Positions 1-26,816 of a stretch of DNA of 27,620 nt are shown here, in pieces; position 1 is the first letter of the stretch, and every line of letters starts with the position of its first letter. The stretch is from a virus. The notes beneath the pieces are model-generated. The model searched no databases, was not told the DNA's origin, and saw only the letters and a program-made list of their open reading frames with translations. The DNA lies in IMG/VR virus record IMGVR_UViG_3300036393_000037, positions 1 through 27,620 of that record; one strand, written 5' to 3'. The position numbers and the translations under genes were made by a program.

Positions 1-1278
1 ATGCTCGTCGAATTCCGTGTTAAGAACCATCGATCGGTGCGCGACGAGCAAGCGCTCACGATGTCCGTCGGGCATGGTGGGCGTCACGATCTAAGTGCTT
101 GGCAGGTCGAAGGGCATTCCGCGCCATTAGTGCCAGTTGCCGTTCTTTACGGGGCCAATGCCAGCGGGAAAAGCAACGTCCTGGCGGCACTCTCCTTCAT
201 GCGCGAAGCCGTCACCGACTCGCAACGGCTTTGGTCGTCCGATGAAGGCGTTCCGCGAGACCCCTTTGCATGGGGAGGAACTCGCCATGCACCGTCGTTG
301 TTCGAAGCGACCATTCTGGTTCGTGGGGTTCGATACCAATACGGATTCGTCGCGACTGACGAAAGCTTCGTTCAGGAATGGCTTTATGCTTGGCCGAACG
401 GCAAGAAGCAAGTTTGGTACGAACGCGACGGAGCCAAGTTCGACTTCAAAAGCAACCTGCGCGGAGAGAACAAGCTGATCGAGGATGTTACTCGACCTAA
501 CGCCCTCTTCTTGTCCGCGTCTGCTCAACACAAACACGAGCAGCTTCAACCGATCTCCGCATGGTTCCGGGCCATTCAGTCGTATAGGGTCCCCGGCCGA
601 GGCTCCTTTCGATACCCTCCGCACGTCTCAGACTATAGCGTGGCTCGACTCCTTCAAGATTCTGCGATCGAGGATCAGCCCATGCTTTTTCCAGTGGACA
701 ACCGAACGGAGCTGACGCTGGGGCGGTTTCGTGCGTTGCTTCGAAACGCGGATATTGGCATTGTCGATGTTCGGCTTAGCAAACCTGAGTCTGACGACCC
801 GCGTAGCCGGAGCCGGCCTCCGCGGTTCCAACTGAAGCATACTGGCGATTACGAAGACGCTTGGTTGCCGCTTGAGGAAGAGTCCCGCGGAACTCGCACT
901 CTCTTCCACATCGCTATGCCGATTCTCCAAGTCATTCAACGCGGCGGGATTCTGATCGTCGATGAGCTGGAGGCAAGTCTCCACCCGTCACTGGCCGACG
1001 CGATCGTGCGGCAATTCAATGATCCAAAGTCGAATCCGCGACATGCCCAGCTCATTTGCACGACGCACGACACAAACCTCTTGGGGACGACTGTCGGAGA
1101 AGCCGCCCTTTACCGCGACCAGGTTTGGCTGACCGAAAAGGATGCTGACGGTGCGACGGAGCTATACCCGTTGACAGATTTTCAGCCGAGAAAGTCTGAA
1201 AACCTGGAACGCGGTTATTTGCAAGGACGTTATGGTGCGATCCCATTCCTCGGAAGCTTTCAGATCGGAGATGAATGA
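1..1278 (+). CDS. AAA15-family ATPase, AbiLi-like half of an abortive-infection pair
   Basis: This 425-residue protein is an SMC/OLD-like ATPase of the AAA15 type. Visible motifs are an N-terminal 'LVEFRVKNHRSVRDE' strand, a Walker A loop GANASGKS at residues 51-58, a Walker B/D-loop segment LIVDELEASLHP with D321 and E322, and a switch histidine H356 in CTTHDTNLL. The family couples ATP binding to control of a partner effector. Six bases separate it from an RloB-like gene, the pairing seen in AbiL (AbiLi plus AbiLii), which is related in design to PARIS and OLD systems. I infer a phage-defence role from the pairing. The window opens exactly on its ATG, so its promoter is not visible. It lies on the strand opposite the phage late genes. 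Confidence 0.85.
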   Translation: MLVEFRVKNHRSVRDEQALTMSVGHGGRHDLSAWQVEGHSAPLVPVAVLYGANASGKSNVLAALSFMREAVTDSQRLWSSDEGVPRDPFAWGGTRHAPSLFEATILVRGVRYQYGFVATDESFVQEWLYAWPNGKKQVWYERDGAKFDFKSNLRGENKLIEDVTRPNALFLSASAQHKHEQLQPISAWFRAIQSYRVPGRGSFRYPPHVSDYSVARLLQDSAIEDQPMLFPVDNRTELTLGRFRALLRNADIGIVDVRLSKPESDDPRSRSRPPRFQLKHTGDYEDAWLPLEEESRGTRTLFHIAMPILQVIQRGGILIVDELEASLHPSLADAIVRQFNDPKSNPRHAQLICTTHDTNLLGTTVGEAALYRDQVWLTEKDADGATELYPLTDFQPRKSENLERGYLQGRYGAIPFLGSFQIGDE

Positions 1279-1284
1279 TCGCCA

Positions 1285-1914
1285 ATGGCCTTCTCCGGAA
1301 ACCGCAAACGAAAGAAAGCTCGAAGAGCGCCGCATCGACGACCAAAGCCAACGATCTTGTTAGTGTGCGAAGGATCAAAGACCGAACCAGAATATTTCCG
1401 CGGCCTCGCCAGTCACTGCAAGAATCCGCTAGTAAGAATCAAAATTTGCCCTGAGCACGGCGTTCCACTCACTCTCGTTGAAATCGCGAAACAGTATAAG
1501 AAGGACGCGGAACGCGAGGCCAAGCGTAAGAGAGACGTCAACTTAAGGATCAATGCGGTTTGGTGCGTTTTCGATGTCGATGATCATCCTCATCTCGAGG
1601 AGGCCCTAACGACCGCGCGAGATAACGGGATTCGAATTGCGCTTTCGAATCCGTCTTTCGAGCTTTGGCTCTTGCTCCACTTTCGCGACGACCCCGGCAT
1701 GAAGCCACGCGACCAAATTCAGGCCTTACTTCGGTCGCATGTGTCCGAATACGATAAGTCGGTCGAGTATGGCACCTACAGTGCCGGCCATGCCGAGGCC
1801 GTGAAGCGCGCAACAAGAATGCATGAACGCGCTCAGCTGGACGGAGAAGACGGACGTAACCCTTGCACGACGGTATACCTGCTGACTAGGTGCATCTCGG
1901 CAGAATCCGCCTGA
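1285..1914 (+). CDS. rloB: RloB-like TOPRIM-fold protein, AbiLii-like effector
   Basis: The 209-residue product matches the RloB family in length and motifs. After a basic N-terminus (residues 7-21) comes ILLVCEGSKTEPEYF with E29, then VFDVDDH with D97, D99 and D100, then NPSFELWLL around E126 and W128. The glutamate followed by a DxD motif is the metal-binding arrangement of TOPRIM nucleases, so a nuclease activity is likely but unproven here. It starts six bases after the ATPase stop; a GGAG about 13 bases upstream is a weak ribosome binding site, so translational coupling is plausible. By analogy with AbiL, the ATPase would sense infection and release or activate this effector. No truncation or missing acidic residue is seen. 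Confidence 0.85.
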   Translation: MAFSGNRKRKKARRAPHRRPKPTILLVCEGSKTEPEYFRGLASHCKNPLVRIKICPEHGVPLTLVEIAKQYKKDAEREAKRKRDVNLRINAVWCVFDVDDHPHLEEALTTARDNGIRIALSNPSFELWLLLHFRDDPGMKPRDQIQALLRSHVSEYDKSVEYGTYSAGHAEAVKRATRMHERAQLDGEDGRNPCTTVYLLTRCISAESA

Positions 1915-21199: not shown

Positions 21200-22504
21200 T
21201 TACGCTGCTGCGATCTTCTGCAGCTTGACCGCTTCGAAGTTGATCACGCCACCGCCAACGCGCTTGGTCGTGTAGAACTTCACGTACGGCTTGCCGGTGA
21301 ACGGATCGCGGAGCACGCGGATGCCCTGGCGGTCCACGATCTGGTACGCGCGACGGATGTCGCCGTAGATCGCGGCCAGTGCGTTCACGTCGATCGCCGC
21401 CACGTCGTTTCCGAAACGGAGCGGACGACCCATGAGCATGGTCTCCAGGCCAACGTTTTTGTCGAAGCCGGCGTTGAAGATCGGGCGGGAATTGCCGTCC
21501 AGGATCAGCATCAGGTTGGCGATGCTGGCACGCTTCACGAGGTACGTCGCGTTGCTCTGGTACTCTTCCTTCAGAGAGGTCTGGAGATTGACCAGGCCCT
21601 CGTAGGTGAAGCCAGCAGCATCCTTCGAGACGACTTGCTCGATTTGGTTCGCGTTCGGGTTCGTGCCCGCCGCGTAGGTCGTAATGCCGCGGGGGCGGAG
21701 AACGCCGTCGCCGCTGATGAAGGCGGTTGCCTCCTTGCGAGCAAAAACGTCCGACACCTTGCGGGACAGCCACGCTTCCATGTCGAAGGTCGCGTCGTCC
21801 AGGAGTTTCTGCGTAGCCTTGGGCTGCGCATAGATCTCATGAACGTTGATGATGATCTTGCCCAGTTGCGGCGTATCGGTGTCGTCACGCGACTGATGCT
21901 CGCCTACCCAGCCGGCATCGGCTTCATCGTTGTCAGTCAGCAATTCGAGCTGATCGGTGCCGATGGTGTCGACGCTTGCCAACTGGCGCATCGGAGACGA
22001 TTCATAGATGAACGTCTCGATCTTGCCGCCGAACTGCGGGACGACCGCGTAGCCGCCGTCCGGATCGCTGTCGACCGACAGAGCCTTGAACTCGGCGTCC
22101 TCGGCCAGCACGCCTTTCATGTGCTCGTCGAAATACTGCTTGTTCGGGTTCTGGGCTTTAGCGAATGCGTTGAACGCTTTACGAGTTTTGACCGCTAAAC
22201 GCTTGCCCTTCTCGTCGATGGTCAGAACATCGCCGGCCGGAGCGCGGTTCATCGCGGTTTCGAGAGCTTCTTGCTTCTTTGCGAGAGCCGCTTGCTGGCC
22301 TTTCATGGCTTCCGCCATCTCTGCTGCCTTTTCGACGGCGTCCGATACTTTCTTCAGCTCAGCCGGGTCGACCTTATCCTTCACGGATTCGTACGCTTTA
22401 CCGAGCTTCTCGACCTTGTCGGTCAGGTGCTGGATGCCGTTCAAGGCGTCGCCAGCAGCTTTAACGGCCTGCTCGACCGTCACTACTTTGGTTTCATCAC
22501 TCAT
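21200..22504 (-). CDS. major capsid protein, HK97 fold
   Basis: The 434-residue protein matches HK97-type major capsid proteins. Residues 1-137 form a coiled-coil delta (scaffolding) domain (VEKLGKAYESVKDKVD, AEMAEAMKGQQAALAKKQEA). The mature part probably begins close to residues 140-150 (FKALSVDSDPDGGYAVVPQ), the usual protease cleavage zone. Later family landmarks are SPMRQLASVDTIGTDQLELL, PQLGKIIINVHEIYAQPKATQKLLDDA, FISGDG and LMGRPLRF. The gene starts in an ATGA overlap with the prohead protease stop. It forms the icosahedral shell. Confidence 0.95.
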   Translation of the reverse strand: MSDETKVVTVEQAVKAAGDALNGIQHLTDKVEKLGKAYESVKDKVDPAELKKVSDAVEKAAEMAEAMKGQQAALAKKQEALETAMNRAPAGDVLTIDEKGKRLAVKTRKAFNAFAKAQNPNKQYFDEHMKGVLAEDAEFKALSVDSDPDGGYAVVPQFGGKIETFIYESSPMRQLASVDTIGTDQLELLTDNDEADAGWVGEHQSRDDTDTPQLGKIIINVHEIYAQPKATQKLLDDATFDMEAWLSRKVSDVFARKEATAFISGDGVLRPRGITTYAAGTNPNANQIEQVVSKDAAGFTYEGLVNLQTSLKEEYQSNATYLVKRASIANLMLILDGNSRPIFNAGFDKNVGLETMLMGRPLRFGNDVAAIDVNALAAIYGDIRRAYQIVDRQGIRVLRDPFTGKPYVKFYTTKRVGGGVINFEAVKLQKIAAA

Positions 22505-23139
22505 GATGTCAGTCCTCTGATTTGGTTAAAAATGTGGGTTAGTTCGTAGAGGTTCTCGACCTCGACCTCCCGTCGAGCATCCAGACTCTTGTAGCCACGC
22601 AGCGCGATCGTCGTCGCCTCTTCGTTGCTGAAACCTCCCTCCCGGAGGTATGCCTCTAATTCCCGAATCGTCTTCGGGCGTTCCTTTACGCCCGTGATGA
22701 GCGCCTTCGGGTTCGCCGGAAACGTGACGAGCGACACCTCGAAAAGCTCCAGCTCAATGAGTTTGCGGATCTCCTTCTCGGTATCGAACTCGTGCTTCTT
22801 CGTCCGGTAGCCGATGGACAGCCCGTCGAGGGCACCTGCTTTGGCGAGCGTGTAGACATCGTTGCCCAGCACCGTCGGCAGGATCGTGCCCTTCAGCCAG
22901 AGGCCTGTGTCACGCTCCTCGATCTCGTTCCAAACGCCGATCGGCTGCTCCGAATTGTGCTGCCATAGCATCTTCGGACGGCCACGCTTGAGCGTCTTCG
23001 TGAACGCTCCGGCCAGCACGATGTCGCCATAGCTGTCCACGTTGCCGTAGATCGAGCCATAGCCTTCGATGGTCCGGCCCTCGCCGTCCTCGCTCGCCTT
23101 GATCTCGTCGAAAACGACTTGTTTCCGTTCCAACTCCAT
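22501..23139 (-). CDS. prohead protease, HK97 gp4/U35 family
   Basis: The 212-residue protein is the prohead maturation protease. Typical segments are GRTIEGYGSIYGNVDSYGDIV, MLWQHNSEQPIGVW with the catalytic histidine at about residue 61, ALDGLSIGY with the serine at 108, and ELFEVSLVTFPANPKA with the acidic residue at about 134. It cleaves the delta domain of the capsid protein. GGGGAGGGG precedes the ATG. It is the first minus-strand gene after the plus-strand PEP-CTERM insertion, with a strong minus-strand hairpin 30 bases upstream. Confidence 0.93.
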   Translation of the reverse strand: MELERKQVVFDEIKASEDGEGRTIEGYGSIYGNVDSYGDIVLAGAFTKTLKRGRPKMLWQHNSEQPIGVWNEIEERDTGLWLKGTILPTVLGNDVYTLAKAGALDGLSIGYRTKKHEFDTEKEIRKLIELELFEVSLVTFPANPKALITGVKERPKTIRELEAYLREGGFSNEEATTIALRGYKSLDARREVEVENLYELTHIFNQIRGLTS

Positions 23140-23166
23140 TGCCCCTCCCCGCGCTCTCCGCGCATG

Positions 23167-23193
23167 AAAAAAGCCCGCGGTTGGCGGGCTTTT
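23167..23193. terminator. bidirectional terminator between protease and PEP-CTERM gene
   Basis: An 8-bp stem (23171-23178 with 23184-23191) and 5-base loop is flanked by an A run (23167-23172) and a T run (23190-23193). On the minus strand it is followed by six T, so it should stop transcripts coming from the terminase/portal side before the protease gene. On the plus strand the T run is shorter. It may insulate the PEP-CTERM promoter from read-through. Confidence 0.8.
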
Positions 23194-23212
23194 CTCAGTC
23201 GCGACCAGATCG

Positions 23213-23242
23213 TTGATCGTTTTCCTTTCCCCGGTCTAGAAT
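23213..23242 (+). promoter_or_regulatory. sigma70-like promoter of the PEP-CTERM gene
   Basis: TTGATC (23213-23218) and TAGAAT (23237-23242, five of six of the -10 consensus) are 18 bases apart, pointing rightwards. The spacing and position give a leader of about 30 bases to the ATG at 23277, which has AAGGGG in front. The promoter overlaps an earlier in-frame ATG at 23241 and so argues against that start. Consensus only, not tested. Confidence 0.5.
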
Positions 23243-23276
23243 GGCCGAGACTGCACTTCACACCAGTAAGGGGTTG

Positions 23277-24005
23277 ATGATGATCCGCCTACCACTGCTT
23301 CTTCTCGCGTTACTGCCGTTTGCCGCAACAGCGGAGGCTGCCCTTGTCCCGTTGTCCTCGTCCACCGAGATCACCTACGACCTCAATTCGCGGGACGAAC
23401 AACCTGCGACCGTGCTCAAGGCAACGACGATCCCCACCAAGTTCGATATCGAGGAAGAGTCGAAAGTAACGTCACCGGCAAGCGTCGGCGTTCACACGAC
23501 TGCCACTCACGACGACAACTCGTTGCACTTCTACCTGCGGCAGTATCTTCATGCCCCGCGTCCACAGGCTGAAACACCCTCCGCACGCAGTTCGTTCATC
23601 ACTCAATTTCGGATCGACACGCTGACCCCGTTTTCCTGGGTCACAAGCGTGTCCTCGAATGCTTGGTTCCCGTCGACAGCCACTAACGAAGACTATGACA
23701 GCGTCCAGCTAATGTGGGACTATCAGCTCAAGAACCTCGATCTCGATCTCATTACCGCAAGTGCCGGCGGCGCAAAAGGCGGCGGCTACTTCAACGGAGC
23801 TGGCCTACTAGAACCAGGACTCTACGAACTTACCGCATTCGTTAATGGCTACTTCATGCCCGACATGAGACGATTCGGCGATGGTTCAGTGAACGTCGAG
23901 AGCACGTTGACCCTCGGTCGTGTGCCCGAGCCGTCGAGCTGCTTACTGGCTATGCTCGGCTTCGCAGCTACTCCGCTTCTTCGTAAGCGACGCCTCAGCA
24001 GATGA
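23277..24005 (+). CDS. PEP-CTERM exosortase-sorted surface protein, phage moron
   Basis: The 242-residue protein (from MMIRLPLLLLALLPFAATAEA) has an N-terminal signal peptide (about residues 1-21) and a C-terminal PEP-CTERM signal: VPEPSS at 216-221, a hydrophobic helix (about 222-235) and the basic tail RKRRLSR. PEP-CTERM proteins are exported and processed by exosortase, mainly known in planctomycetes, verrucomicrobia and some proteobacteria with exopolysaccharide systems. The middle is beta-rich with no recognised domain. It is the only plus-strand gene within the phage head cluster, with its own promoter and ribosome binding site (AAGGGG); its tail overlaps the converging minus-strand gene by 11 bases. 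I infer a moron acting on the host cell surface, perhaps receptor masking. Confidence 0.85.
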   Translation: MMIRLPLLLLALLPFAATAEAALVPLSSSTEITYDLNSRDEQPATVLKATTIPTKFDIEEESKVTSPASVGVHTTATHDDNSLHFYLRQYLHAPRPQAETPSARSSFITQFRIDTLTPFSWVTSVSSNAWFPSTATNEDYDSVQLMWDYQLKNLDLDLITASAGGAKGGGYFNGAGLLEPGLYELTAFVNGYFMPDMRRFGDGSVNVESTLTLGRVPEPSSCLLAMLGFAATPLLRKRRLSR

Positions 24006-24222
24006 TCGTGTCCGACTTCCACGGCGGCAGCGTGGGTGCCGGCGTAGGCCAAGGCATATCTTTCACCGATGGCATTGGCGCGGGACCTACCGGAGACGTG
24101 ACCTTCACGAACACCGTCTTCAGGTGCTCGCAGATTGACTTCCACTGCTCGGCCGTTGGTGGCTGCACATCGGTCAGCTCAACGAAGCCCTGCATCCAGT
24201 AGGCGAATTGCTCAGGCGACAT
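23995..24222 (-). CDS. small phage protein of unknown role
   Basis: The 75-residue protein opens MSPEQFAYWMQGFVELTDVQ, followed by PPTAEQWKSICEHLKTVFVKVT and a proline-rich end. The 'PEQFAYWMQGFVE...' helix followed by a second amphipathic helix is a form often met among small phage proteins of unknown function encoded near head genes. It overlaps the neighbouring SEC-C gene by 11 bases and the tail of the plus-strand PEP-CTERM gene by 11 bases. I cannot assign a function. Confidence 0.7.
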   Translation of the reverse strand: MSPEQFAYWMQGFVELTDVQPPTAEQWKSICEHLKTVFVKVTSPVGPAPMPSVKDMPWPTPAPTLPPWKSDTIIC

Positions 24223-24589
24223 GATCGGTCTTTGGACGGGTCGTGGCTCCGTTGACGGATGGCTGCTTCTCGCTCTTGACCTCCCAAAAGGCGAACGGCA
24301 GCTTGTCAGTGTGTTTCACCTTTGCTTCGGCGGACCCAAGCAAGATTGCCGAGCAGTCCCAGAAGCCCGAAAGGGTTCCAACAAACGGGCTGCTCTTGTC
24401 TTCATGGCACGGATCGTAGGCCAAGCCGGCACCGCAAGGGCACCGATCGTATGCCGCATAAACCAATCGCTTGCTCAGCGGTATTGCCAGCATTTCGTTG
24501 TTCCGGGCTTCGCACCCTAGCCGTTTCAATTCGGTGGACCTTTCGTCCAGCAGCTTTGCTTCTGCGAATAATTCTTCAGATGTCGTCAT
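24212..24589 (-). CDS. small SEC-C zinc-motif phage protein
   Basis: The 125-residue protein has an N-terminal helix (EELFAEAKLLDERSTELKRL) and the segment YDRCPCGAGLAYDPCHEDK, in which C50, C52, C61 and H62 form the exact C-x-C-x(8)-C-H pattern of the SEC-C zinc-binding motif. SEC-C in SecA and other proteins contributes to protein-protein and nucleic-acid contacts. The rest shows no known domain. The ATG lies within the ATGA junction with the MuF-like gene, behind GAGGAGG, so it should be translated efficiently and coupled to head morphogenesis. Its role in the phage is unknown. Confidence 0.7.
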   Translation of the reverse strand: MTTSEELFAEAKLLDERSTELKRLGCEARNNEMLAIPLSKRLVYAAYDRCPCGAGLAYDPCHEDKSSPFVGTLSGFWDCSAILLGSAEAKVKHTDKLPFAFWEVKSEKQPSVNGATTRPKTDHVA

Positions 24590-25338
24590 TCGGCCTCCTC
24601 ATATGCCAGCGCGCAGCGGCAGTTGATCGTTTCCTCCGCCGGAGCCGACGGGTCTCCCGGCCGGTCCATCATCACGCCGCCCACGCTGAACTTCTCGTCG
24701 AGCGGTATCGGCGGATGATCTTGCATCGCCCGATGGCTGTCCCGGGTTCGATCATCCATCGTCGGCAGCCAGACCTTCAGCAGCCTGATGCCCAGATCCT
24801 GCTCTGCGTTCCTTGCGGACTCCGCTGCACCAAACGTCGCGGCCGCATGCGTCTCGGTTCTGGCCACAGTCGCCGCGCGGTAGGCAGTCAGTTGACTTAC
24901 CTTCTTGATCCGGCTGGCGATTGCCGCTGTACCTTCACCTGCTTCGACACCCTCTTGCAGGGCGTCAATCACATCGTCGCGGTCGGTAGCTGCGATCAGC
25001 TTGGCCTTTCTCAGCCCCTCGCGGACGATCCATTCCGACACCAGGTGTTGGAACAGTGAGTCAGCTGCCTTTCTCTCGATCCTCCGGCTCTTCACGCTGG
25101 ACAATGCCAGCTTGCCGAAGAACGGGATCACCCGGCGGTAGTGCTGCTCAAGGATTACCTTCAGCGCCCGCTCGTGGTTGGTGAACAGGTACGAGGGCAG
25201 CTCAATGCCCTTTTCGACCTGCTCGGCAACGGACCGAATGAGCCGATTCCGCTGTCTTGCCGCTTCGATCCGCAGGCGTCGTTCGAACCGCGTCATTCCA
25301 AGCTGGAAGGCTCGGAACTGAGTTCGACGGTTACGCAT
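24586..25338 (-). CDS. MuF-like minor head morphogenesis protein
   Basis: The 250-residue protein has a helical N-terminal part and, from about residue 150, the typical C-terminal domain of phage Mu F-like head proteins: VARTETHAAATFGAAESAR (about 160-180), KVWLPTMDDRTRDSHRAM (about 190-205), then PGDPSAPAEETINCRCALAYE at the end. These proteins associate with the portal and are injected or packaged in small numbers. It lies directly after portal and the small overlapping ORF, the usual place. Confidence 0.88.
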   Translation of the reverse strand: MRNRRTQFRAFQLGMTRFERRLRIEAARQRNRLIRSVAEQVEKGIELPSYLFTNHERALKVILEQHYRRVIPFFGKLALSSVKSRRIERKAADSLFQHLVSEWIVREGLRKAKLIAATDRDDVIDALQEGVEAGEGTAAIASRIKKVSQLTAYRAATVARTETHAAATFGAAESARNAEQDLGIRLLKVWLPTMDDRTRDSHRAMQDHPPIPLDEKFSVGGVMMDRPGDPSAPAEETINCRCALAYEEAE

Positions 25339-25525
25339 CGACGCCCAGGCGATACATGAAGTGTCCCATCATCCGCATGTTCCCGACTCCACCCTCTGCC
25401 CGGATCAAGCAAACCCGCTCGTCGCAGTAGAGGATGTTCAGCTGCAATTCGATCGTCAGCTCCGTACGAGGCCTTCCGAAGTCCACCTCGACGACCTTGC
25501 CGTCGTCATTCTGCACTCGGCTCAT
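25331..25525 (-). CDS. small protein overlapping portal and MuF-like genes
   Basis: The preferred start is the ATG at 25525 (MSRVQNDDGKVVEVDFGRPR, 64 residues), within the end of the portal gene; a downstream GTG at 25516 is an alternative, and the long upstream frame is out of frame with the portal protein and not supported. The protein continues ELTIELQLNILYCDERVCLIRA, then GNMRMMGHFMYRLGVD, with two cysteines. It overlaps the portal gene by 20 bases and the MuF-like gene by 8. Small conserved ORFs in this position are frequent but of unknown function. Confidence 0.55.
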   Translation of the reverse strand: MSRVQNDDGKVVEVDFGRPRTELTIELQLNILYCDERVCLIRAEGGVGNMRMMGHFMYRLGVDA

Positions 25526-26816
25526 CTTCATCCTCGTCCGGCTTATCTGCCTCGCTACCCGGCTCAGCCAGGTCCACATCGCCCGCCATATCGATCGGTA
25601 TGTCGCTCGACGACACCAGCAGCACACCGCCAGGTGAGTCGCTCGGCTTATAGTTCTCGTACCCCATAGCGTTCCGCTTCTCGTCGATAGTCAGGTACTC
25701 AGCTTGGTTGATTCGCTCGCCCTTCGCCTTACGCAAAGGCTCCAGGGCCGGGATCATCTCCTCGTCGTACCAGAGGTAGAGATCGTCGCCGAACTGCGGG
25801 GTGAGCCAACGGTTCAGGTCGTCGAGCACCGCGCCGAGCGTCGGGAGAACGGTGTTCGCCCAGAAGCTCAGCTCCGCCTGCTCGTAGTTCGAATATGTGC
25901 TCTCGCCGGGGATGCCTGCGATCTGCGAGGGAACGCCGTAGACGCTGGCCACGAACCTGGCCGCTGCCCAGATGTTCTCCTTGAAGTCCATGTCGCGGGG
26001 ATTCATCCCCATCTGCTGCCACTTCAGGCCGCCTTCGAGCAACAGGGGCCTGCCCGCGTTACCAGCACCGGACAGCTGATTGTCGATCTGCTCCTTCAGG
26101 CGGAGGTATTGCTCTTCACCGAGCGTCGCCGGCTGACCGTCTTTCTCCTCGACCACGAGCGCTCCAGGAGGGCGGCATTCGTTGTCGATCAGCTTTTTGT
26201 TCCACCGCTGGCCTTCGTTCACGATGTCCACGCCGTAGGCAGCAGCGGCCATCGGTGACAGGCCTCGCCACGCATCGAGCGGGTTGAAGGTCTTGCCGTG
26301 CAGGACAGCCGATTTGCCGGTGATTTGGTCGACAGCGTATCGCGTTGCCTGCAGCACACTGGGCTTATATTCGAAACACGCCGGGAACATGAGCTGCCCA
26401 GGCTTCACGACGATCTTGTCGGGATCGAGCAGTTGCAGCTCTTTCGTCTGCCCGCGCTCCGCACCGTTTCCCAGGATGAAATACTCACCACCGATGCCCC
26501 GGTAGCTCAGCAGGGCGTTCATGAACTGCCTGCCGGACTGCATCGGATTCGGGCGGGCAAGCAGATCGATCAGCGGATGCTTGTCGAGCTTCTTGATCTT
26601 GCCGCCACGCTTCCGATAGACGCAGATGTCGACCGAGGCCCCCGCCGTCGCGATCTTCGAGACGCAGGTGTGGACCACGGCGTTCGCCGCATAGCCCTCA
26701 GCCGCATAGGCCCGGTATTTCCACGCGGTGAACGTCGCCCCACGCATGCCGACCAGGAAGCTGCCTGACTTCCGGCTTATTGCAAAGGGTTCAGCCTTCT
26801 GCCGGAACGGCCACAT
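25506..26816 (-). CDS. portal protein, HK97 family
   Basis: The 436-residue protein begins MWPFRQKAEPFAISRKSG and shows the HK97 portal series: AVVHTCVSKIATAGASVDICVY, HPLIDLLARPNPMQSGRQFM, LLSYRGIGGEYFILGNG, GKTFNPLDAWRGLSPMAAAAYG, and VYGVPSQIAGIPGESTYSNYEQAELSFW. It forms the dodecameric portal ring for packaging and neck attachment. The C-terminus is acidic (ADKPDEDEDEPSAE). The start is six bases after the terminase stop. Confidence 0.94.
   Translation of the reverse strand: MWPFRQKAEPFAISRKSGSFLVGMRGATFTAWKYRAYAAEGYAANAVVHTCVSKIATAGASVDICVYRKRGGKIKKLDKHPLIDLLARPNPMQSGRQFMNALLSYRGIGGEYFILGNGAERGQTKELQLLDPDKIVVKPGQLMFPACFEYKPSVLQATRYAVDQITGKSAVLHGKTFNPLDAWRGLSPMAAAAYGVDIVNEGQRWNKKLIDNECRPPGALVVEEKDGQPATLGEEQYLRLKEQIDNQLSGAGNAGRPLLLEGGLKWQQMGMNPRDMDFKENIWAAARFVASVYGVPSQIAGIPGESTYSNYEQAELSFWANTVLPTLGAVLDDLNRWLTPQFGDDLYLWYDEEMIPALEPLRKAKGERINQAEYLTIDEKRNAMGYENYKPSDSPGGVLLVSSSDIPIDMAGDVDLAEPGSEADKPDEDEDEPSAE

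What the first reader, a model, noticed from the sequence alone, without database searches (positions are those of the whole stretch)
23160..24010. PEP-CTERM surface protein carried as a moron inside the phage head cluster
A signal peptide plus VPEPSS, a hydrophobic helix and RKRR at the end mark an exosortase substrate. It is the only plus-strand gene between the MuF/portal genes and the prohead protease, with its own promoter (TTGATC-N18-TAGAAT), ribosome binding site and an adjacent terminator. That is moron architecture. PEP-CTERM proteins are host surface/exopolysaccharide proteins, so a phage copy might change the host surface after infection or during lysogeny (receptor masking, superinfection exclusion). 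I know of no established phage family of PEP-CTERM morons.
Basis: partly seen in the sequence, partly recalled or inferred. Interest (0 to 1): 0.8.

Follow-up and report, generated by a model that had tools for sequence, protein, structure and literature searches.

The report
Phage-carried exosortase-sorted surface protein gene
A virus of planctomycete bacteria carries, in a slot that is empty in its closest relatives, an intact gene for a protein tagged for display on its host's surface, and similar tagged genes lie beside capsid and packaging genes in dozens of other uncultivated phages, suggesting that phages often use this host export route to alter the surface of the cells they infect.

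Summary
Window 23277-24005(+) encodes 242 aa with a signal peptide and a C-terminal VPEP-hydrophobic helix-RKRR tail, but the tail scores below curated cut-offs (Pfam PF07589 16.7 vs 20.7 bits). It sits between MuF (plus two small minus-strand ORFs) and the HK97 prohead protease. Six close relatives have only 14-22 bp between MuF and protease, seven have 226-489 bp; the window has 1446 bp. So this is inserted cargo at a variable junction. The nearest relatives in sequenced genomes are in Zavarzinella formosa (Gemmataceae), which encodes an exosortase and PEP-CTERM proteins. 'Moron architecture' is partly met: a weak promoter and RBS exist and wobble-position GC is lower, but the strong hairpin lies 5' of the gene, best oriented against the minus-strand late operon; no terminator follows the gene. 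The idea that phage PEP-CTERM genes are unknown needs revising: capped signature scans of IMG/VR found 125 loci with PEP-CTERM ORFs, 42 with a phage module gene in the held stretch, including a 25-member family (median dN/dS 0.185, invariant VPEPSTWAM) that in one lineage lies between portal and major capsid genes. The literature searched describes none. Function (surface conversion, probably superinfection exclusion) is inferred.

The parts
23277..24005 (+). PEP-CTERM protein gene, 242 aa (alternative start 23280)
   Evidence: ORF and translation; PF07589 16.7 bits, NF038126 E 8.7e-4
23277..23336 (+). predicted Sec signal peptide, MMIRLPLLLLALLPFAATAEA (A-x-A cleavage site)
   Evidence: read from sequence; helix 4-17 in a low-confidence model
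23922..24002 (+). C-terminal sorting tail VPEPSSCLLAMLGFAATPLL-RKRR-LSR (residues 216-242)
   Evidence: PF07589 over 216-239; helix 219-236; same layout as defined in PMC1569441
23268..23273 (+). Shine-Dalgarno-like AAGGGG
   Evidence: sequence
23213..23242 (+). promoter-like TTGATC-N18-TAGAAT
   Evidence: 9/12; 2 found vs 0.5 expected
23169..23193 (-). bidirectional hairpin; strong intrinsic-terminator form on the minus strand (T6 tail), 5' of the PEP-CTERM gene and about 30 bp upstream of the protease start
22501..23139 (-). HK97 prohead protease
   Evidence: TIGR01543 120.6 bits, PF04586
21200..22504 (-). HK97 major capsid protein
   Evidence: TIGR01554 299.8 bits
23995..24222 (-). small phage ORF, 75 aa, convergent with and overlapping the last 11 bp of the PEP-CTERM gene
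   Evidence: phrog_28500 E 3.4e-14
24212..24589 (-). 125-aa ORF with SEC-C-like CPCG...C motif, overlapping the MuF stop
   Evidence: PF02810 E 0.01, sub-threshold
24586..25338 (-). MuF-like head morphogenesis protein
   Evidence: PF04233 59.3 bits, phrog_2468
25506..26816 (-). HK97 portal protein
   Evidence: PF04860 232 bits
26823..27620 (-). terminase large subunit, cut by the record end
   Evidence: PF17289, phrog_2

Best explanation
Shown: an HK97-type phage lineage of Gemmataceae-like Planctomycetota has, in this one member, an intact exosortase-type surface-protein gene inserted between MuF and prohead protease, antisense to the late operon. Inferred: it is transcribed from its own promoter (in the lysogen and/or early in infection), exported by Sec, held by its C-terminal helix, released at the PEP motif by the HOST exosortase (none was seen in the phage record) and placed on the cell surface or in the exopolysaccharide. 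There it alters the surface, most likely hindering adsorption or DNA entry of competing phages (superinfection exclusion) or binding of the phage's own progeny to debris. This is one instance of a wider class of phage cargo that exploits the exosortase route.
For: Complete PEP-CTERM anatomy plus sub-threshold profile hits. Empty site: MuF-protease gap 14-22 bp in L031, L032, L033 and three Zavarzinella loci, 226-489 bp in seven others, 1446 bp here; none of 15 relatives' records has a PEP-CTERM hit over cut-off. GC3 0.66 vs 0.73-0.82 in structural genes. Nearest relatives in bacterial genomes are four Zavarzinella formosa loci; that genome has PF09721 exosortase at 210 bits and PEP-CTERM proteins over cut-off. 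A second plus-strand low-GC3 cargo in the same record is AbiL-like defence, AbiLi 322 and AbiLii 102 bits, i.e. other anti-competitor cargo. Independent recurrence: PEP-CTERM genes with phage module genes on the held stretch in 42 viral loci, between portal/terminase and podovirus major capsid genes in lineage A, antisense beside an HK97 capsid gene in L372; family F1 under purifying selection with an invariant VPEPSTWAM.
Against: Tail below curated cut-offs. No homologue of the body (392 Planctomycetota, 95 Gemmataceae, GenBank phages, IMG/VR), so selection on this gene cannot be measured. Promoter weak; no terminator after the gene; a hairpin points against the late operon. No expression, localisation or exclusion data. 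The host of this particular phage is inferred from relatives.
Confidence: 0.5

Rival explanations
1. Passenger: a host PEP-CTERM gene picked up by illegitimate recombination, tolerated because it lies between operon segments, with no benefit to the phage.
For: Unique to this record among 15 relatives; orphan body; lower GC3; weak promoter.
Against: Frame, RBS, signal peptide and tail are all intact; the same class recurs beside phage genes in several unrelated lineages, and family F1 there is under purifying selection.
Confidence: 0.22
2. Matrix modifier: the displayed protein changes exopolysaccharide attachment or aggregation of the lysogen (colonisation, biofilm or virion release) rather than excluding phages.
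For: PEP-CTERM proteins are tied to exopolysaccharide loci (PMC1569441) and are needed for floc formation in Zoogloea (Gao et al. 2018, as cited in PMC12642866).
Against: No enzymatic or carbohydrate-binding domain found; structure model of the window protein is unreliable.
Confidence: 0.2
3. Exosortase decoy: an abundant phage substrate saturates the host exosortase and strips or delays host PEP-CTERM surface proteins that serve other phages as receptors or are barriers.
For: In family F1 the PEP motif is 100% invariant while the distal helix and basic tail vary, so the sorting motif itself is under selection.
Against: The F1 body is strongly conserved too (mean column identity 76%), which a pure decoy would not need.
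Confidence: 0.05
4. Assembly artefact joining host and phage DNA.
For: Orphan gene with shifted composition in a metagenomic record; reads could not be examined.
Against: The gene is interior, its stop overlaps a phage ORF (phrog_28500) by 11 bp, both flanks continue one syntenic head cluster in the order seen in relatives, and junction sizes vary in relatives.
Confidence: 0.03

Closest known systems
PEP-CTERM/EpsH (exosortase) substrates, Haft et al. 2006 (PMC1569441); PF07589, TIGR02595
   Same: Signal peptide, near-terminal PEP, hydrophobic helix, basic cluster, short tail after it, body without homologues, planctomycete setting
   Different: Encoded in a phage head cluster; scores below curated cut-offs; no exosortase or exopolysaccharide genes beside it
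Phage morons / lysogenic-conversion genes (lambda lom and bor, P22 sieA; own knowledge)
   Same: Single extra gene between two genes that are adjacent in relatives, own promoter, opposite strand, shifted composition, envelope protein
   Different: Hairpin lies 5' of the gene and no terminator follows it; uses host exosortase sorting, which none of the classic examples does
Receptor-blocking phage lipoproteins (T5 Llp; own knowledge)
   Same: Exported phage protein that modifies the host surface
   Different: Lipoprotein route, not exosortase; here no receptor is known
CwpV of Clostridioides difficile (PMC4737114, listed)
   Same: A sorted surface protein can block phage infection
   Different: Host-encoded, Gram-positive cell-wall protein
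Phage PEP-CTERM family F1 found here (alignment A2, 25 loci)
   Same: PEP-CTERM protein in head or helicase clusters of phages, about 215 aa
   Different: PEPxxWA type, over the PF07589 cut-off in the two members scanned; body not homologous to the window protein

Membership tests
PEP-CTERM exosortase substrate | C-terminal PEP motif followed by hydrophobic helix and basic cluster at the protein end | tested here: met
   VPEPSS-CLLAMLGFAATPLL-RKRR-LSR, residues 216-242
PEP-CTERM exosortase substrate | Score over curated profile cut-off (PF07589 20.7 bits; TIGR02595 16 bits) | tested here: not met
   PF07589 16.7 bits; TIGR02595 not listed; NF038126 and NF038129 about 19 bits, below cut-offs
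PEP-CTERM exosortase substrate | N-terminal signal peptide | tested here: inconclusive
   Hydrophobic N-terminus with A-x-A site read by eye; no signal-peptide predictor available
PEP-CTERM exosortase substrate | Exosortase present in the cell | tested here: inconclusive
   Present in Zavarzinella (210 bits) and a Planctomycetota MAG with related phage loci; the true host is not known
PEP-CTERM exosortase substrate | Cleavage and surface transfer by exosortase | not testable with these tools
   needs experiment
Phage moron | Inserted between genes that are adjacent in relatives | tested here: met
   MuF-protease gap 14-22 bp in six relatives vs 1446 bp
Phage moron | Own promoter | tested here: inconclusive
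   9/12 sigma70-like match, 2 found vs 0.5 expected; planctomycete promoters not covered
Phage moron | Own terminator downstream of the gene | tested here: not met
   No plus-strand terminator at 24005-24700; the hairpin is upstream
Phage moron | Composition differs from phage backbone | tested here: met
   GC3 0.66 vs 0.73-0.82
Phage moron | Expressed from the prophage | not testable with these tools
   no RNA data

The most novel reading that the evidence does not exclude
PEP-CTERM (exosortase) substrates are a widespread, phage-adapted and so far undescribed class of surface-conversion cargo, repeatedly placed beside packaging and capsid genes and shared between unrelated phage lineages, so that the host exosortase acts as a general route for phage superinfection exclusion; the window gene is the planctomycete example.
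Probability: 0.35. Interest if true: 0.8.

Novelty: new variant of a known kind. Interest (0 to 1): 0.6.

Why it matters
Exosortase is a poorly understood protein-sorting route, and planctomycete phages are almost unstudied. If phages repeatedly carry its substrates, these are natural, compact probes of what PEP-CTERM proteins do on the surface, and they suggest that the exosortase route mediates phage competition. The phage family F1 makes this directly testable in laboratory alphaproteobacteria.

Tried and rejected
Body homologues: none in GenBank phages, IMG/VR and GTDB exact-word scans, 392 Planctomycetota (best 19.6 bits, E 7e-4, a VPLP-tailed planctomycete protein, L239), 95 Gemmataceae or PDB. 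AlphaFold of the window protein without relatives: pLDDT 34.5, unusable for the body. F1 model pLDDT 61, beta-rich with a C-terminal helix; Foldseek hits have TM below 0.4 and were discarded. A PEP-like hit in the record of relative L037 is the end of a multi-helix membrane protein, not PEP-CTERM. The first loose pattern scan was mostly chance. Papers pairing PEP-CTERM with phage terms: lists inspected, two read by term; none describes phage-encoded substrates.

Full report
OBSERVATION. The reading frame at window 23277-24005(+) is real and complete: 242 aa, hydrophobic N-terminus with an A-x-A site, and the tail RVPEPSSCLLAMLGFAATPLLRKRRLSR. Pfam PEP-CTERM matches residues 216-239 at 16.7 bits (cut-off 20.7, E 0.0078); NCBIfam NF038126 and NF038129 match at E about 9e-4, also below cut-off. 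So it is a diverged but anatomically complete PEP-CTERM protein. Codon usage favours this frame; GC3 is 0.66 against 0.73-0.82 in the structural genes. In the roughly 230 other loci then fetched, the same tail at the end of an open frame occurred only in two bacterial-chromosome loci.

SURROUNDINGS. The window is a whole 27,620-bp IMG/VR virus record. On the minus strand, in order of transcription: terminase (cut by the record end), portal, MuF, a 125-aa SEC-C-like ORF, a 75-aa ORF (phrog_28500), [PEP-CTERM gene on +], prohead protease, HK97 capsid, then tail genes and lysozyme. A bidirectional hairpin at 23169-23193 folds at -31 kcal/mol with T6 on the minus strand. It lies 5' of the PEP-CTERM gene and about 30 bp before the protease start. 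It does not end the PEP-CTERM transcript; if active it would stop late transcripts before protease and capsid unless they are antiterminated. No minus-strand promoter was found between it and the protease. No plus-strand terminator follows the gene.

INSERTION. Relatives were found through portal, capsid and protease. MuF stop to protease start is 14-22 bp in L031, L032, L033 and the Zavarzinella loci L079-L081; 226-489 bp in L034, L035, L037, L082, L159, L161 and L165, with small same-strand ORFs where listed; 1446 bp in the window. More distant relatives L056, L070 and L078 hold opposite-strand genes at this junction with HTH and, weakly, restriction-endonuclease profiles (mostly sub-threshold). 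The junction is thus a variable cargo site. Whole records of 15 relatives contain no PEP-CTERM hit over cut-off, so the acquisition looks recent or local.

HOST. The four best matches to the portal alignment in GTDB species genomes are on scaffolds of Zavarzinella formosa DSM 19928, the fifth on a Planctomycetota MAG. Three of the Zavarzinella scaffolds are 0.4-2.1 Mb, consistent with prophages, so the lineage is probably temperate. Zavarzinella and the MAG encode exosortase (PF09721, 210 and 191 bits) and PEP-CTERM proteins over cut-off. The host of this record itself is inferred.

OTHER PHAGES. Clustering of neighbours and profiles showed a terminase, portal, capsid, protease, MuF or phage helicase gene in 42 of the 125 held stretches, within 3 kb of the PEP-CTERM gene in 35, and on both sides of it in 11. 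The remaining loci were not shown to be phage and may include host flanks. Three arrangements recur. (A) TerL - portal - PEP-CTERM - small ORF - podovirus major capsid (NF033394, 100 bits, over cut-off). (B) Beside or between portal (phrog_1216) and terminase, often antisense. (C) Between a phage helicase and a block of further phage genes. L372 is an HK97 phage with the gene antisense beside its capsid gene. Family F1 (25 members, shared by arrangements A and C) has median dN/dS 0.185 and an invariant VPEPSTWAM, and no match at E<=1e-8 in 385 Alphaproteobacteria genomes (no positive control). Note that invariance of VPEPxxWAM is partly built in by the search pattern; the S and T at the two free positions are not. 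The window protein is not a member of F1 or of the other families beyond its tail. F1 and a second family have no match in 50,697 GenBank phage records.

LITERATURE. The founding description (PMC1569441) includes Planctomycetes, notes that PEP-CTERM proteins typically have no homology outside the tail, and contains no occurrence of 'phage'. Searches pairing PEP-CTERM with prophage, phage, bacteriophage, virome, viral contigs, vOTUs and auxiliary metabolic genes turned up no description of phage-encoded substrates. This is an open-access library only.

MECHANISM. Shown: gene anatomy, insertion, recurrence, selection on F1. Inferred: Sec export, host exosortase processing, surface display and change of surface. 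Superinfection exclusion is the leading function because phage surface cargo commonly does this (own knowledge; PMC10883804 and PMC11436027 listed) and because the same record carries an AbiL-like defence pair (AbiLi 322 bits, AbiLii 102 bits). Matrix modification, decoy and passenger remain open.

VERDICT. The finding is sound, with the terminator claim corrected and the 'unknown in phages' premise replaced by a broader and more interesting pattern. For this single gene the function is unproven.

Noticed in passing
window 1-1914 (+): AAA_21 ATPase and RloB pair matching AbiLi (322 bits) and AbiLii (102 bits) of PADLOC, plus strand, GC3 about 0.6: a second cargo module, AbiL-type defence, at the left end of the record.
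   Followed up: partly
L118:11287-14060 (uncultured Kordiimonas chromosome): Three tandem PEP-CTERM genes between a phage/GTA-type portal and a prohead protease; no capsid match follows. Same junction as in the window, in an unrelated setting; the genome holds at least 20 PEP-CTERM tails.
   Followed up: partly
L426, L432, L441-L443, L464-L466, L469, L490, L491, L500: A podovirus lineage with a PEP-CTERM gene at a fixed place between portal and major capsid genes.
   Followed up: partly
L282:7434-8971 (102-kb viral contig): Two adjacent PEP-CTERM genes next to a terminase large subunit (phrog_38).
   Followed up: no
L056:6051-6974, L070:6238-6942, L078:6986-7759: Opposite-strand HTH plus endonuclease-like genes at the same MuF-protease junction, perhaps free-standing homing endonucleases.
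   Followed up: partly
window 24212-24589 (-): 125-aa ORF with a SEC-C-like zinc motif overlapping the MuF stop, GC3 0.65; no relative found in related loci.
   Followed up: no
window 23169-23193: Strong terminator-like hairpin inside the late operon about 30 bp before the protease start with no promoter after it; suggests antitermination or an attenuator.
   Followed up: no
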